Shown: positions 6,695-13,050 of the stretch, piece by piece
Layout of the letters: the number at the start of each line of letters is the position of its first letter
Numbering within the stretch: the first letter of the stretch is position 1
IMG/VR virus record: IMGVR_UViG_3300046538_000115
Span: 1 to 35,542 of that record
Direction: 5' to 3' (one strand)
DNA from: a virus
DNA: 35,542 bases
Program-made: the position numbers and the translations under genes
Notes under the pieces: model-generated
What the model was told of the DNA's origin: nothing
Database searches by the model: none
The model's input: the letters and a program-made list of their open reading frames with translations, nothing else

Positions 6695-7575
6695 CAGGCT
6701 TTCCTCGTCAGAACTTGTGCCGCCAGTCCCGCCAAGCGAGTGCTGGCACCGTTCATGGTGGTAAGCGCCTGGTCAAGCGATTCGCGGGACGCGGTAAACC
6801 GGTCCACGATGTTGCCCAGATCAACTGGATTGAGGGCGGATCGAGCCCCCATTACACTGCTTAGGACGTCCTCACCTAACCGTGACAGATCGGCACCATC
6901 TTTGAGCAGACCCGCTGCTCCCGTAAGATCTTGCAACGGCTCGATGGCCCTCGCGGTGACACCCAGCAACTGGGGAACCTGGCCAAGGATCATCGAGGCG
7001 TTACCGCTCTTGACCGTCTCATACAGGTTCTGACCGGCTTTCAGCATATTGCCGGCTGTTTTGGCGTGACCAATCACCGCCTGGACGGTGCTGGGGGATG
7101 GCATCAGTCGCGAGATAAGTCCGGGCGATCCTGCAGTAGCTGCAGGTGTGCCGCTCAAAGCAGTATCGAGTAGACCCGGACGAGCGACCTTGCGCGTGAA
7201 AGCTCCGGTGTACTCCTTCAGGCTCAATTGAACCGTTGCAGAGTGGATTTGGCCCGTAGCTGTTGCGCGGCGGATGGTGTTGCCGATGTTGGTGATGACA
7301 TAGGCGCCCAGGTACTCGCCGGAGCCCATGACAAACGCCAGAGGCTCGTGCTTGGCCTTGGCCTGGCGCAGAGCCCGTAGGCGCTCCTCGGGATCGCCCA
7401 GGGCAGGATGCAGCTCGATGGTCAGGTTGCATTCATCCAGCCCTTCACCAATCCACTCAAGCAAGGGCTTGCCCTGGATACGGGCATGCTCGGCCCAATC
7501 GGCCGAGCTGCTTTGCTCCATGCCGGTGATGCCACCAGCAACGGTGAACTCGATATCGCCCAGGATGGCAAACAT
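6694..7575 (-). CDS. U: Tail completion protein U (P2 gpU-like), extended
   Basis: 293-aa protein. Roughly the first 130 residues resemble the P2 gpU family (MFAILGDIEF, GKPLLEWIGEGLDE, LEEYTGAF-like SLKEYTGAF), a tail terminator/tube protein. P2 U is about 160 aa; the extra C-terminal half here is alanine/leucine-rich, likely helical and without a recognisable domain. Its position between the tape measure and gpX fits U. Mu-type DNA circularisation protein N is an alternative role for the position, but the N-terminal resemblance favours U. Confidence 0.82.
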   Translation of the reverse strand: MFAILGDIEFTVAGGITGMEQSSSADWAEHARIQGKPLLEWIGEGLDECNLTIELHPALGDPEERLRALRQAKAKHEPLAFVMGSGEYLGAYVITNIGNTIRRATATGQIHSATVQLSLKEYTGAFTRKVARPGLLDTALSGTPAATAGSPGLISRLMPSPSTVQAVIGHAKTAGNMLKAGQNLYETVKSGNASMILGQVPQLLGVTARAIEPLQDLTGAAGLLKDGADLSRLGEDVLSSVMGARSALNPVDLGNIVDRFTASRESLDQALTTMNGASTRLAGLAAQVLTRKA

Positions 7576-10169
7576 CAGGCAATCCCCTCATCAGACGAGC
7601 CATAGCTGCGGCGGCGCTTGTCATGCATGTAACGATCCATCATCCGCACGAAGTCGGCATAACCGGCCTGAAGGCCCTGTTGGACCTGCTGTTGAGTTTC
7701 GGTGCCGCCGGGCACGGTAATTTGAGGTGAGAAGTGAATGACGGGCTGGCCATCACCAGCAGTTGGAGAACCGCTAGGGGACGTGCCGCCGCCATTACCC
7801 ATCATGCTCGCTCTGGAGACATTGGCCGGGTTCGGCGGTGCAAGGTCGACACCCGATTGCGCTGCCATTCCGAGTGCGGCCTTGCGTACCAGACCGGCTT
7901 GCTCGCTGATGCCAATGGCCGCACCTTCGCTGATGTTGGCCCCGTACCCCATGAACACGCGGCTCGGCGACTGGATGCCAAGCGTCTCGGTGAACCAGCC
8001 TTTTACTGAAGAGCCGATGCCAATCACGCTGTCCTTCAGCGAGCTGGCCATGTTGCTGATGCCGTTTACCAGGCCTGTGACAATCATGCCGCCGAATTCG
8101 CTGAATTTGCCGGGTAGTTCGACTCCGAAATAATTCATCACGGCAGCAAATGCACGGTAGAAAAGTCCAACCGGCGAAAAGTTGACAATCAATGCGGCGA
8201 TGCCTGCAAGCCCACCACTAAAGCCAGCTTTGATCTCGCCCCAAAGTCCGACAAAGAACCCTTTGATCGGCTCCCAATAGCGGTAGATCAAATAAGCTCC
8301 GAGCGCGATACCCGTGATCAGTAAGCCGATGGGGTTCATTAGCAAAGCTCTTCCAAGCCAAAGGATCGCCTGGCCGGCAAGCTTCAATCCGAACAACAGC
8401 GTGCCGCCGAGGATCTTGCCCAAGAACAAACCGCCCCGCGCCACCATCATCAACGGTGTGCCGAGCGCCATTGTGACACCGCGCAGGAACAAACCACTGT
8501 ATTTGGCCACCGTGAGCAAACCACCGCCGATCCGGGAAAGACCAGAGATCAGCGGTGCGAATTTACCCATCTGCCATAAGCCGCGGAGTAACGTCCATTT
8601 GGCGGAGAGCGTTCTGACGGTGGTGGTCATGGCCACAAAGGGCGACAGCACCAGGTTGGCTCCATAGGCAACACCGATGAAGGCCAGTTTACTGATCAGG
8701 AGAGCACCGACCAGACCGACGATACCCTTTATAAGCGCGGGGTTTTCACCGGCCCAGGTGGCGAATGACTGCATTACCGGTAGGACTGCTTGGGTAACAT
8801 CAACAAGAGCAGGTAGCAGCACGCTACCGATGGTTATTCCGATTTCCGATAGATTAATCGTCAGCGCTTTCAACTGTTCCTTCGGACTCTCCATGCGCTT
8901 TTTCCAATCAGCATCACCAATTCCCTTATCGGCATCATCGATACTGGTTTTTTGGATTCCACTTAGGTCCTTGCGGTTTGCCAAAGCGGGTCGAACAAAA
9001 GAAAGCACCTGCATGTCGGCAAATAACTCGCCTAGCTTGTACGATTCGTTCAACCGTTTCAGAGCTATTTCTCGCTCGGCATCGTCCTTGATTGCCATCG
9101 CTTTTTGAAACTCACCAGCGGCTTTCGGACCTTTGCTCCCGACATACTGAGTAATCACTTCAAGCATTGCCTGAACTGGGGTAAGTCCTTTCCCGACCAG
9201 ATTCTGCATGCTCTCCTGAAGGTTAATTCCCGCGCCTTCGAATGACTTCAAAGTATCCTTGGCAGTAAGCTTGGACAGGAAGTTTTTGAAGTTATTGGCT
9301 GCCTCGTCATTGCTACCCGCGCCGCGCCGGGCAATCTGAAGGGAAGCACCAATCTCTGCTACGGCTCGCTCGCCAGTGATACCCAAAGCGGCAAACTGAG
9401 GAGTCAATTGAGGTAACCACTTAGCCATGTCAGCTAGTTCGAATTGACCGTTCTTCCCTGCGGAAGCGAGCATGTTCATTGAGCGCTCAAATCCTGATGC
9501 TCCAATCCCCAAGTTGTCGCTGAGCGCAATTGCCACAGAGCCGAGGTCATCCATGCTGGCTCGTGTTGCAGTAGCGAACTTAGACATTAGAGGTGCATAG
9601 GCTTCCAGCTCTTTAACGTTGGAAATCCCACCAGCGATCAGCACTTGGGCGCCTGCCGCCACCTCCATCTGAGTTTGGTTCCACTTCAGAGCAGAGCTCC
9701 TAAGGACATCGCCCAGCCGCTTCTCTTCTGCTGCGTCAAAGCCACCGGTAATGGCGATGTCATTTGTCCGGTCCTTGAAGTCGATTGCGGTGCGCATCGA
9801 CTGAACAACCGGCGCACCAAGTGCTACGCCCGTACCGACCGTTTCCATCGCCTGGCCACGTAATTCGCTGCGCTTGTTCTTGAGAGTTTCGCCACGAGCT
9901 ATGCTGATATTGAGGCGGTCCTGTTTGACCTTGAGTTGTTCAATCGTCCGTCCGACCTGGTCGTACTGCCGACGCATACGCTCAATGCCAGTACCGCCAC
10001 GCGCCAGGGACGCAGCCAGTTCGGTGCCGATGAGTTTCTGCTTGGCCGTCAGGCCATCAGTCGCACGACCGAGCTGTTGTACTGTCGATCTGGCCGAACC
10101 GAATGCACCGCTCAGGGTGCTGGAGACCGCAGCTCCGATCCTTAATCCAACCCGAACTTCACTGGCCAT
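7575..10169 (-). CDS. T: Tail tape measure protein
   Basis: 864-aa tape measure protein that sets tail length and leaves the tail during DNA ejection. It has a helical coiled-coil N-terminus (about 30-110), a TP901-1-like core around IAITGGFDAAEEKRLGDVLR and SNVKELEAYAPLMSKF, two long hydrophobic stretches (about 474-512 and 609-632), and a glycine/proline-rich tail. It is the longest protein in the window and follows the E/E' chaperone frames, the standard order. The GIQSPSRVFMGYG sequence near residue 735 is common in Mu- and P2-type tape measures. Confidence 0.93.
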   Translation of the reverse strand: MASEVRVGLRIGAAVSSTLSGAFGSARSTVQQLGRATDGLTAKQKLIGTELAASLARGGTGIERMRRQYDQVGRTIEQLKVKQDRLNISIARGETLKNKRSELRGQAMETVGTGVALGAPVVQSMRTAIDFKDRTNDIAITGGFDAAEEKRLGDVLRSSALKWNQTQMEVAAGAQVLIAGGISNVKELEAYAPLMSKFATATRASMDDLGSVAIALSDNLGIGASGFERSMNMLASAGKNGQFELADMAKWLPQLTPQFAALGITGERAVAEIGASLQIARRGAGSNDEAANNFKNFLSKLTAKDTLKSFEGAGINLQESMQNLVGKGLTPVQAMLEVITQYVGSKGPKAAGEFQKAMAIKDDAEREIALKRLNESYKLGELFADMQVLSFVRPALANRKDLSGIQKTSIDDADKGIGDADWKKRMESPKEQLKALTINLSEIGITIGSVLLPALVDVTQAVLPVMQSFATWAGENPALIKGIVGLVGALLISKLAFIGVAYGANLVLSPFVAMTTTVRTLSAKWTLLRGLWQMGKFAPLISGLSRIGGGLLTVAKYSGLFLRGVTMALGTPLMMVARGGLFLGKILGGTLLFGLKLAGQAILWLGRALLMNPIGLLITGIALGAYLIYRYWEPIKGFFVGLWGEIKAGFSGGLAGIAALIVNFSPVGLFYRAFAAVMNYFGVELPGKFSEFGGMIVTGLVNGISNMASSLKDSVIGIGSSVKGWFTETLGIQSPSRVFMGYGANISEGAAIGISEQAGLVRKAALGMAAQSGVDLAPPNPANVSRASMMGNGGGTSPSGSPTAGDGQPVIHFSPQITVPGGTETQQQVQQGLQAGYADFVRMMDRYMHDKRRRSYGSSDEGIA

Positions 10170-10265: not shown

Positions 10266-10379
10266 TCATCTGTTCATCCTTTCGGCAACCTCGTTCCGCC
10301 GATTGATCTCACGCTGACAAACATCGACCCAGCGCCAATACTCAACCATGTCCAATCGTGCAATCTCAGACGGCTGCAT
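10266..10379 (-). CDS. Tail assembly chaperone E' (overlapping frame)
   Basis: A 37-aa reading frame (MQPSEIARLDMVEYW...) overlapping the last 14 bases of E in a different frame. It keeps coding-like sequence upstream of its ATG as WDEALLLVLR, inside E, back to a stop at 10461-10463. GpE-type chaperone extensions of contractile phages have this tryptophan-rich look, and P2 makes E+E' by frameshift. The offset from E is +1, equal to -2, the shift reported for Mu. Either a frameshift fusion or separate initiation at 10379 is possible; I saw no clear slippery site. Confidence 0.7.
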   Translation of the reverse strand: MQPSEIARLDMVEYWRWVDVCQREINRRNEVAERMNR

Positions 10380-10680
10380 CCTCAAGACCAGCAGCAACGC
10401 CTCGTCCCAGGACTGCAGCAAGGTCTCCGCCGCCAGCCATTTCCCGCAACACCTCGGTGGCTAACTTGGAGTCGGCGATATCGAACTCGCCAAGATCCTC
10501 GATGGTGATACCCAGCATCTTGGACACAAGCACGTCTTCCATCGCCGCTTCGTCTTTGGTTACTGCCTGGGCGGCGCTGATGTCTTTACGTTTCAGACGC
10601 TTGATAGACAGCTTCGAGATCGTGTCGCCGCTGGCACTTTTGAAAGGAAACTTGAGGGTAAAGCTGATTGGTTCGGCCAT
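10366..10680 (-). CDS. E: Tail assembly chaperone E (Mu gp41-like)
   Basis: 104-aa tail assembly protein of the P2 E / Mu gp41 type; it probably coats the tape measure during tail polymerisation and is not in the virion. The N-terminus is a short beta-rich segment (ISFTLKFPFKSASGD), then a helical region with IKRLKRKDISAAQ, ending in a glycine-rich segment. It is the first gene of its block, 77 bases below late element B. The second frame E' begins inside it. GGAG lies 9-12 bases before the ATG. Confidence 0.85.
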   Translation of the reverse strand: MAEPISFTLKFPFKSASGDTISKLSIKRLKRKDISAAQAVTKDEAAMEDVLVSKMLGITIEDLGEFDIADSKLATEVLREMAGGGDLAAVLGRGVAAGLEDAAV

Positions 10681-10853: not shown

Positions 10854-11087
10854 TCAACAATGGCGGCAGCACTGACACTGGTAACGCGGTGTCATCTGAT
10901 AACGGCCCGACGAGAGCCTAGCCAATGCCTCTACTAACGTCCCTATCGGTAGATCTTGTATGCATCGGTTCCAGTATTCGCGAGCACGGACATAGTCCAT
11001 GTCACGACGAACTTGCATGTCGAAGATTTTGAGCAACGCTTCCGATGCATTAAACGCTTCAAGCCGCTCTACGTTGGAATGATCCAT
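10854..11087 (-). CDS. Small cysteine-rich protein of unknown function
   Basis: 77-aa protein I do not recognise. The first 60 residues look helical and charged; the C-terminus has four cysteines and a histidine in CQCCRHC, which could bind metal. The ATG at 11087 has GGAGG 5 bases upstream, and the gene directly follows the tail tube gene, so it is probably a real late gene. Position after the tube gene, where no conserved P2 or Mu structural gene is expected, makes a moron-like accessory gene possible. Confidence 0.65.
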   Translation of the reverse strand: MDHSNVERLEAFNASEALLKIFDMQVRRDMDYVRAREYWNRCIQDLPIGTLVEALARLSSGRYQMTPRYQCQCCRHC

Positions 11088-11101: not shown

Positions 11102-11626
11102 CTATGCTTGCCCAATATTCTTCCGGTACTTGGATAGCTGATCTTCGCCACCAACCCGGAAGATGTTGGACAGGTAATCCAGCAACACCACTTCATCCCC
11201 ATTGAGTACCTGGCGCACATAGGTGGCCGAGAACTGCGTTTCATACTTTGTCGGGTCGCGGGGTTTATGACTGCCCAGCTGAAACTCCTTGCCGGTGATG
11301 GTCATCATCGTGACCAAAGGGATCTCGTCGACCAGACCACCGTTGTTGAACACCTGGACGTTGGAGCGGCATTGCAGCTGGATGCTCTTGAACGGAGTGA
11401 CCAGCTTCTTCGCTGCTTCGGCGTACAGACTGTTCCAGGTCATCTTGCCTTCCAGCTTATCGATACCATCCGGCAGCTCAATCAGGCCGACCATACCCAG
11501 CCCTTGAAAGTCGCTCATCACGGCTTTGATCGAGCCGAGATCGATCTCTTCACATTTGCCGAAGAAGCTGGAGCCGTCCAGATAGATGTTGGCGTTGGAA
11601 ATGCGGTGTGCGCTAAAACCGGCCAT
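11102..11626 (-). CDS. Major tail tube protein (P2 FII / Mu M-like)
   Basis: 174-aa tail tube protein of the P2 FII family. The N-terminus (SAHRISNANIYLDGSSFFGKCEEIDLG) and the FQGLGMVGLIELPDGIDKLEGKM-like region are characteristic of the family; subunits stack as rings inside the sheath. Its ATG overlaps the sheath stop codon, and it is followed by the small cysteine-rich gene. Length is near P2 FII. Confidence 0.92.
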   Translation of the reverse strand: MAGFSAHRISNANIYLDGSSFFGKCEEIDLGSIKAVMSDFQGLGMVGLIELPDGIDKLEGKMTWNSLYAEAAKKLVTPFKSIQLQCRSNVQVFNNGGLVDEIPLVTMMTITGKEFQLGSHKPRDPTKYETQFSATYVRQVLNGDEVVLLDYLSNIFRVGGEDQLSKYRKNIGQA

Positions 11627-13050
11627 TACTGAGCCCCCAGGTTGACCAGGTATTCCCCGGTGATTTCAGTTTCGAAGGTACCGCGCTCGAACGGCACGGG
11701 AACCCCCAGTTTGTAGCTGAACAGAACGTGTCCCAGCTCAAGCTCGGTCTGTGGATTACGGGCAGGGTCATACCAGCACTCGCCACCGAGAAGCGCCTCA
11801 TCGCCAACCAGCTTGCGGATAAACAGGTTGACGCTTTCGGTGATGCTGGTAAGCAGCGAATCGGTAACCGGCTGATCAACGAACTGCAGCGAGCTGTAGC
11901 GAATCGACTCGTCCACCACGTCCTTGGTGCGCCGCACGTTTTCAAAGTTGCGCATGTGAGTCACGGTTGGCCAAGCGGCGGAACGGTTTCCCCACAGACG
12001 GAGGCCAGTGCCGAATGAATTGAAAACAGTGGTTATGCCGTTTTCGTTGAGCAGGTTGACCTCACTGTTCGCGTCATCGACCCGAGCCGTCAACGGTCGT
12101 TCCAGGCCAATCACGCCAACCAGTTCCTGGTTGGACGAGCTCCACCAGTAGCCCTTGTCGTTGTCGATCTTCGCTCGCAGACCTGCTGCGCGGATCGACA
12201 ATGGCTGCAGGCGTGAACCGTCGGTCGCCGCGTCGTACACCTTCACATGCGGATAGCACAGACGCACACGGTCGCTGCTCGTGTTGAAGTTGATGGCACC
12301 GGCCGGACCGCGCCCCGCAATAACTTGCTGGACCGTGGTCCCGATAGGCGCATCGACGTATGTAAACGCGCTGAGCTGCACGGCCGAGATGATCAATTCG
12401 ACACTCACCGAGTTCAGGGTGCTGAAGCCCGGCGCAATGAAGATTTTCGGGAAGTACCCCAAGAGGTTGTAGCTGTCCTGGAAAGCCTTCAAGCCAGTAC
12501 GCCGACCAGCGACGGTGACACCACCGATGATATCGGCAGGGGTGACCTTGCTCGGGTCAGCATGGGTGTAATCCGCCTTCACCTGGGCGTTGGCGGGAAT
12601 ACTCCCTGTCGCCAGGCGCGTCACTCGACCGGTCAGCATGTTGACGGTGTAGTCGGTGCCCAGATCGTAGGTATTGACGCCATCGGCAGACTTGATCGTT
12701 AACAGCTGCAGCGCGCCGTGCTCCAGCTGCAGCAGCTCGTTATCACCAAACTGTTTTTCCTGGTCAGCGACGTTGGTGCGATGAACCGCCGGATCGAGCA
12801 CGTTGACCACCAACACCGTACCGGTGCCGAAGTCGTAGATGCCTTCCAGGGCTTCAGGAATGCTGAAGCCGGTGAGGTGCGAGCCGAACTGAGCGGCGTC
12901 TGTTTCGTTTAACGACTGAGTCAGCTCATTGACCGGACCGATAGGCGCTGTACCAACCAGCGCGATCACCGCCGACTTGACCACCCGAATGGCCCGAGGG
13001 CCATTCTCAACCTCGGTGGTTTCAATACCGTGCAAATAGTTAGCAGCCAT
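11626..13050 (-). CDS. Tail sheath protein (P2 FI / Mu L-like)
   Basis: 474-aa contractile sheath protein. Family features are the N-terminal YLHGIETTEVENGPRAI handle region, VKSAVIALVGTAP near residue 25-37, and the C-terminal TEITGEYLVNLGAQ segment. It establishes that the virion has a contractile tail (myovirus morphology). It precedes the tube gene with a 1-base overlap. Confidence 0.94.
   Translation of the reverse strand: MAANYLHGIETTEVENGPRAIRVVKSAVIALVGTAPIGPVNELTQSLNETDAAQFGSHLTGFSIPEALEGIYDFGTGTVLVVNVLDPAVHRTNVADQEKQFGDNELLQLEHGALQLLTIKSADGVNTYDLGTDYTVNMLTGRVTRLATGSIPANAQVKADYTHADPSKVTPADIIGGVTVAGRRTGLKAFQDSYNLLGYFPKIFIAPGFSTLNSVSVELIISAVQLSAFTYVDAPIGTTVQQVIAGRGPAGAINFNTSSDRVRLCYPHVKVYDAATDGSRLQPLSIRAAGLRAKIDNDKGYWWSSSNQELVGVIGLERPLTARVDDANSEVNLLNENGITTVFNSFGTGLRLWGNRSAAWPTVTHMRNFENVRRTKDVVDESIRYSSLQFVDQPVTDSLLTSITESVNLFIRKLVGDEALLGGECWYDPARNPQTELELGHVLFSYKLGVPVPFERGTFETEITGEYLVNLGAQ

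What the first reader, a model, noticed from the sequence alone, without database searches (positions are those of the whole stretch)
10266..10460. Overlapping E' frame with a +1/-2 offset
Inside and after chaperone gene E, another frame stays open from 10460 to 10266 and reads like a chaperone extension (WDEALLLVLR, then MQPSEIARLDMVEYW). Frameshifted E+E' products are conserved in tailed phages; most use -1, whereas Mu is reported to use -2, the offset seen here. No obvious slippery run is present; CTGGGACGA near 10407-10415 vaguely resembles the G-rich Mu site.
Basis: partly seen in the sequence, partly recalled or inferred. Interest (0 to 1): 0.6.

Follow-up and report, generated by a model that had tools for sequence, protein, structure and literature searches.

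The report
Phage tail-chaperone +1 frameshift signal

Summary
The E' frame (10460-10266, minus strand) is real, conserved and offset +1/-2 from E (10680-10366, Pfam Phage_TAC_7). E' sits at this offset in 263 of 265 relatives found by the E' part. CTGGGACGA is not the shift site: it lies at 10410-10402, inside sequence already evolving as E' codons, and early-stopping relatives lose it.

Across the family the signal sits at E's conserved Phe codon (window 10449-10447). It reads TTT followed by C in 118 of 119 unique Phe-bearing relatives, though TTC is the commoner Phe codon. UUU_C is a known +1 slip site. In an independent enterobacterial group, E-type substitution turns into E'-type substitution at exactly this point.

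The window belongs to a Pseudomonas subclade where this codon is TTG/TTA/TTC/CTG. There the preceding GAGGTG, a strong Shine-Dalgarno match at nearly the RF2 spacing, is invariant (61/61). TTT phages nested in the subclade have lost GAGGTG.

Best reading: a programmed +1 shift at TTG_C with CGG in the A site, assisted by an RF2-like Shine-Dalgarno sequence, making a 137-aa E+E' fusion. No protein evidence exists. It is a new variant of a known kind.

The parts
10366..10680 (-). E: tail assembly chaperone, 104 aa (0-frame product)
   Evidence: PF10109 Phage_TAC_7, E 1.4e-13; phrog_166 tail protein, 1.6e-16; lies between tube (PF04985, 11102-11626) and tape measure (PF10145, 7575-10169)
10266..10460 (-). 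E' open frame, +1/-2 relative to E (stop to stop)
   Evidence: phrog_8286 3e-14; conserved in 263/265 relatives
10269..10445 (-). E' part of the predicted fusion, 59 aa, starting GKWLAAETLLQSWDEALLLVLRMQPSEI; TGA stop at 10268-10266
   Evidence: translation; E' coding signature
10447..10449 (-). predicted +1 shift codon (P site), TTG here; TTT followed by C in 118 unique relatives
10444..10446 (-). CGG, predicted slow 0-frame A-site codon; +1 frame resumes with GGG at 10445-10443
   Evidence: CGG in 60/60 non-TTT A1 unique relatives, zero changes
10450..10455 (-). GAGGTG, Shine-Dalgarno-like stimulator directly upstream of the shift codon
   Evidence: zero changes in 60 unique non-TTT relatives; duplex with 16S 3' end -9.2 kcal/mol in 61/61 versus background -1.8
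10438..10446 (-). CGG GAA ATG, invariant in the window's subclade; explained by dual coding (E: REM, E': GKW) and/or by the signal
10402..10410 (-).

Best explanation
E and E' are the two parts of a tail-assembly-chaperone gene joined by programmed +1 ribosomal frameshifting. Most ribosomes finish E (104 aa). A minority slip one base forward when the codon at 10449-10447 (TTG here, TTT in most of the family) is in the P site and CGG is waiting in the A site. They skip C10446 and read GGG AAA TGG ..., giving a 137-aa fusion: E residues 1-78 plus 59 residues of E'. In the family at large the slip is UUU to UUC. In the window's subclade the slippery codon has been lost, and the shift is proposed to depend on GAGGTG (10455-10450), which pairs with the 16S rRNA anti-Shine-Dalgarno at nearly the RF2 spacing and destabilises the frame while the ribosome waits at CGG. 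The fusion is presumed to link tape measure and tube, as lambda gpGT does, while E alone coats the tape measure. Shown by sequence: the pair, its conservation, where E' coding begins, the invariant UUU_C of relatives and the invariant GAGGTG. Inferred: that ribosomes shift here, the +1 direction in this window, the Shine-Dalgarno mechanism, the efficiency and the tail role.
For: Location and family: PF10109 between tube and tape measure. Offset +1/-2 in 263/265 relatives. At E's conserved Phe codon, unique relatives have TTT_C 118 and TTC 1, while flanking genes use TTT for only 37% and 47% of Phe; by 70%-identity clusters the ratio is 24:1. In TTT phages this codon is nearly invariant [0,0,1 changes] while its neighbours vary. 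In the enterobacterial group CGA_TTT_C is nearly frozen, and changes move from E third positions to E first positions (= E' third positions) just after it. The E' frame has no stop from -8 nt onward in 179/179, with 48 stops four to five codons upstream of it; the earliest E stop is at +27, so every shift must lie in that interval. In the non-TTT subclade GAG GTG and CGG GAA ATG have zero changes in 60 unique sequences, against a median of 8.5 third-position changes and no zeros in 72 other E codons. Non-TTT relatives have GAGGTG 60/60, TTT relatives 13/35; TTT phages nested in the subclade have lost GAGGTG. [quoted passage not shown]); the RF2 motif puts CTTT 3 nt after its Shine-Dalgarno (PMC12421855).
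Against: No protein or reporter evidence. In this window TTG_C gives poor re-pairing in the +1 frame (UUG to UGC), so the slip step is not explained by tRNA re-pairing alone. Relatives are not independent, and recombination could move the E segment as a block, so the GAGGTG/TTT trade-off rests on few events (7 and 9 inferred changes). GAGGTG to TTG spacing (2 nt from GAGG) is not exactly that of RF2. CGG GAA ATG may be conserved only because both frames code. In the window's own subgroup alone, the codon-position profile would also allow a shift up to about 24 nt later.
Confidence: 0.72

Rival explanations
1. Frameshift pair as above, but the shift is -2, as in Mu, either at CTGGGACGA (10410-10402) or at GGA GAC (10428-10423), where tRNA-Asp could move from GAC to GAG.
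For: The frame offset fits -2. GAC (10425-10423) has few changes, and the clearest start of E' coding in the window's own subgroup is just after it. GGA CGA resembles Mu's GGG CGA.
Against: E' coding signature already precedes CTGGGACGA, and the motif decays where E stops early. GAC is not universal (AAC, GCC, GAG, CGC occur). Neither site exists in the rest of the family, which shares UUU_C. Shine-Dalgarno spacing fits +1, not backward shifting.
Confidence: 0.13
2. In this subclade E' is made separately, from an internal TTG start (10421-10419, GGCGGAGACC TTG CTG CAG), and not as a fusion.
For: TTG is present there in 55/61 non-TTT relatives and a GGAG lies 3 nt upstream in the window.
Against: The upstream pairing is not conserved (-6.2 with sd 3.3, weakest -1.5 kcal/mol). 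26 of 179 unique relatives have no ATG/GTG/TTG anywhere in E' before its core, including two in the subclade. It does not explain invariant GAGGTG 27 nt upstream. E' conservation (the Trp of GKW) begins before this TTG.
Confidence: 0.08
3. GAGGTG-N9-ATG (10455-10438) is an internal translation start in the E frame, and its conservation has nothing to do with frameshifting.
For: Spacing and sequence look like a ribosome binding site; ATG is invariant in the subclade.
Against: It would make only a 24-aa E fragment, not E'. The site coincides with the family-wide UUU_C position, and GAGGTG disappears in nested lineages that regain TTT.
Confidence: 0.05

Closest known systems
Tail assembly chaperone frameshift pairs (lambda G/GT, P2 E/E+E', Xu et al. 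2004)
   Same: position between tube and tape measure, short chaperone plus C-terminal extension in another frame, E family PF10109
   Different: those use -1 heptamers (P2: TTTTTTG, PMC3091744); here the offset is +1/-2 and the family signal is UUU_C
Phage Mu gp41 -2 frameshift
   Same: same frame offset; Mu-like transposable phage with contractile tail
   Different: Mu has CGG GGG CGA; no such G run here, a different place in E, and the evidence favours +1
Bacterial prfB (RF2) +1 frameshift
   Same: Shine-Dalgarno-like sequence immediately upstream of the shift codon, slow 0-frame A-site codon, +1
UUU_C +1 sites (influenza PA-X UCC_UUU_CGU; bacterial UUU_Ynn)
   Same: relatives of the window have TTT_C, often TTT_CGN
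   Different: the window itself has TTG_C; PA-X is a eukaryotic-virus case without Shine-Dalgarno
Haloarchaeal myovirus HSTV-2 and Listeria/SPP1 tail genes (+1)
   Same: +1 shifting in tail genes has been reported (PMC5009743, PMC3498833)
   Different: unrelated phages, different sites; no UUU_C family signal tested here

Membership tests
Tail assembly chaperone frameshift pair | Chaperone gene between major tail/tube protein and tape measure | tested here: met
   PF04985, PF10109, PF10145 in order
Tail assembly chaperone frameshift pair | Conserved overlapping extension in another frame | tested here: met
   263/265 relatives at the same offset; E' codon signature
Tail assembly chaperone frameshift pair | Fusion protein made by frameshift | not testable with these tools
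   needs mass spectrometry or a reporter
Mu-type -2 frameshift | +1/-2 frame offset | tested here: met
Mu-type -2 frameshift | G-run slip site (GGGGGCGA) allowing -2 re-pairing | tested here: not met
   absent; GGA CGA lies inside E'-coded sequence
UUU_C +1 slip site | UUU codon followed by a pyrimidine at the shift point | tested here: not met
   window has TTG_C; met in 118 unique relatives
RF2-like Shine-Dalgarno-assisted +1 shift | anti-SD complementarity about 3 nt upstream of the shift codon | tested here: met
   GAGGTG, -9.2 kcal/mol in 61/61; register within 1 nt of RF2
RF2-like Shine-Dalgarno-assisted +1 shift | slippery codon that re-pairs in +1 (CUU_U) | tested here: not met
   codon is TTG/TTA/TTC/CTG in this subclade
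RF2-like Shine-Dalgarno-assisted +1 shift | slow A-site codon (UGA in RF2) | tested here: inconclusive
   CGG invariant, 17.7% of Arg codons in these loci; decoding speed unknown, dual coding could explain it

The most novel reading that the evidence does not exclude
A clade of Pseudomonas Mu-like phages has replaced the slippery codon of a conserved UUU_C +1 frameshift with a non-slippery one (UUG_C) and compensates with an invariant Shine-Dalgarno sequence and a slow CGG codon. This would be programmed +1 frameshifting without tRNA re-pairing, with reversals visible in the tree.
Probability: 0.5. Interest if true: 0.65.

Novelty: new variant of a known kind. Interest (0 to 1): 0.5.

Why it matters
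It identifies a conserved +1 signal (UUU_C) in a tail-chaperone family where Mu's -2 might be assumed. RefSeq lists the second half as a separate small gene in the E. coli genome inspected, and the locus occurs in 629 of 5,426 E. coli genomes. The natural exchange between a slippery codon and a Shine-Dalgarno stimulator gives matched pairs for testing how much each contributes to +1 frameshifting in bacteria.

Tried and rejected
CTGGGACGA as shift site: rejected. GGA GAC (10428-10423) was my own first placement from the window's subgroup alone; given up when the wider family showed UUU_C and an earlier start of E' coding. Conserved RNA structure around the site: RNAalifold z from -2.2 to +0.5. 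A hairpin in the window (10425 to about 10369) pairs in 85% of cells but shows almost no compensatory change: inconclusive. Solved-structure search with E: nothing. NCBIfam with E and E': nothing useful. HMM placement of the Phe codon was wrong for L013, L073, L094, L100 and was corrected by anchoring on E'. BcepMu itself was not in the collection. No whole-genome kin search was possible because the window is a virus record. Several literature searches found no report of this site, but the library is open access only and Xu et al. 2004 could not be read.

Full report
WHAT IS THERE. The window is a 35.5-kb IMG/VR virus record with a Mu-like transposase/transposition-protein pair and a contractile-tail operon on the minus strand: sheath 11626-13050, tube 11102-11626, a 77-aa ORF, E 10366-10680, tape measure 7575-10169, GpU-like protein, baseplate hub. 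E is a Phage_TAC_7 tail assembly chaperone (PF10109, 1.4e-13). A second frame, E', is open at 10460-10266, offset +1/-2 from E, and matches phrog_8286 at 3e-14.

IS IT REAL. Yes. I collected relatives from IMG/VR, GTDB genomes and phage records, mostly with E' queries. Of 265 loci with both parts, 263 have E' at the same offset. The exceptions are Pasteurella phage AFS-2018a (L088), at -1 with a G GGA AAG sequence just before the E stop, and L261, where E and E' are one continuous frame. Published tail-chaperone pairs include -1, -2 and +1 cases (PMC5009743).

WHERE THE FRAME CHANGES. In an E-coding region substitutions collect at E third positions; in an E'-coding region at E first positions (= E' third positions). 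In 65 enterobacterial-type relatives the pattern is E-type until CGA TTT C, which is nearly frozen (CGA 1,1,0; TTT 0,0,0 changes), and becomes E'-type within two codons after it. In the window's own group it is E-type upstream and E'-type from about 10422 on, with a frozen block GAG GTG TTK CGG GAA ATG between. In 179 unique relatives the E' frame never has a stop from 8 nt before the TTT/TTG codon onward, while 48 have a stop four to five codons upstream of it; no E stops earlier than 27 nt after it. The shift must therefore lie in that interval in every phage, and the only shared feature there is TTT_C.

THE SIGNAL. At this codon, unique relatives read TTT_C 118, TTG_C 55, TTA_C 3, CTG_C 2, TTC_C 1. 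TTC is nearly absent although TTC is the commoner Phe codon in the flanking genes (TTT 37% and 47% in the two groups). Counted as 70%-identity clusters, TTT:TTC is 24:1. UUU followed by a pyrimidine is a known +1-prone site in bacteria, and UUU_C is the PA-X +1 site (PMC5009743, PMC3498833). tRNA-Phe pairs better with UUC than UUU, so +1 is favoured; -2 offers no re-pairing (inference from codon-anticodon rules).

THE WINDOW'S SUBCLADE. Here the codon is free (TTG, TTA, TTC, CTG), but GAG GTG before it and CGG GAA ATG after it show zero changes in 60 unique sequences; 72 other E codons all have at least one third-position change (median 8.5). CGG GAA ATG G can be explained by dual coding (E: R-E-M; E': G-K-W). 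GAGGTG lies upstream of the shift and cannot. It pairs with the 16S 3' end at -9.2 kcal/mol in 61/61, against -1.8 for other E 9-mers, -6.0 in TTT relatives of the same group and -0.5 in the enterobacterial group. GAGGTG occurs in 60/60 non-TTT but 13/35 TTT relatives of this group (Fisher p 7e-13, not corrected for relatedness). TTT phages nested among TTG phages have GCGGTG, GATGCT or GAGACR instead. In anti-SD register the shift codon starts one base closer than in RF2, where the slip site follows the SD by 3 nt. I therefore propose an SD-assisted +1 shift at TTG_C with CGG waiting in the A site. I recall a 1997 study by Schwartz and Curran on UUU/CGG dicodons in the RF2 context that fits this idea (own knowledge, not read here).

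CTGGGACGA (10410-10402) resembles Mu's CGG GGG CGA only in passing. It is invariant because E' needs W-D-E and E must avoid TGA; where E stops just upstream (L073, L085) it decays to TTGGGATGA and CTGGGATGC while E' keeps SWDE or SWDA.

PRODUCT. E 1-78 + GKWLAAETLLQSWDEALLLVLRMQPSEIARLDMVEYWRWVDVCQREINRRNEVAERMNR, 137 aa; P2 E+E' is 142 aa (PMC3091744). The role, bridging tape measure and tube, is taken from lambda and not shown here.

LIMITS. All evidence is comparative. The step at UUG_C lacks good re-pairing and is the least certain part. E' made from its own start is disfavoured: 26 of 179 unique relatives have no ATG/GTG/TTG before the E' core, and the upstream pairing is not conserved. 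RefSeq annotates E' as a separate 'GpE family phage tail protein' in the E. coli genome I opened (L268); the locus is in 629 of 5,426 E. coli genomes, and that start is probably wrong.

Noticed in passing
L261:1212-1623: A metagenomic relative in which E and E' form one continuous reading frame (natural fusion) while TTT CGG is retained; could be real or a sequencing error.
   Followed up: partly
L088:968-1401: Pasteurella phage AFS-2018a has E' at -1 instead, with GGGAAAG just before the E stop: direction of the shift changed within the family.
   Followed up: partly
window 10803-10778 (minus): Ten-base-pair GC-rich hairpin (GAAGCCCCGC CATCGT GCGGGGCTTC, then GTCTTT) just upstream of E, terminator-like, inside the tail operon; region folds with z -2.7.
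   Followed up: no
window 10854-11087 (minus): 77-aa ORF between tube and E, phrog_25421 (2e-14), unknown function.
   Followed up: no
L268:881-1018: RefSeq annotates E' as a separate 'GpE family phage tail protein' starting inside E; probably the frameshifted extension, mis-started.
   Followed up: partly
window 10425-10369 (minus): Hairpin GCTGCA.GTCCT / AGGATGCAGC downstream of the shift codon, 85% of cells paired over 67 relatives but with little covariation.
   Followed up: partly
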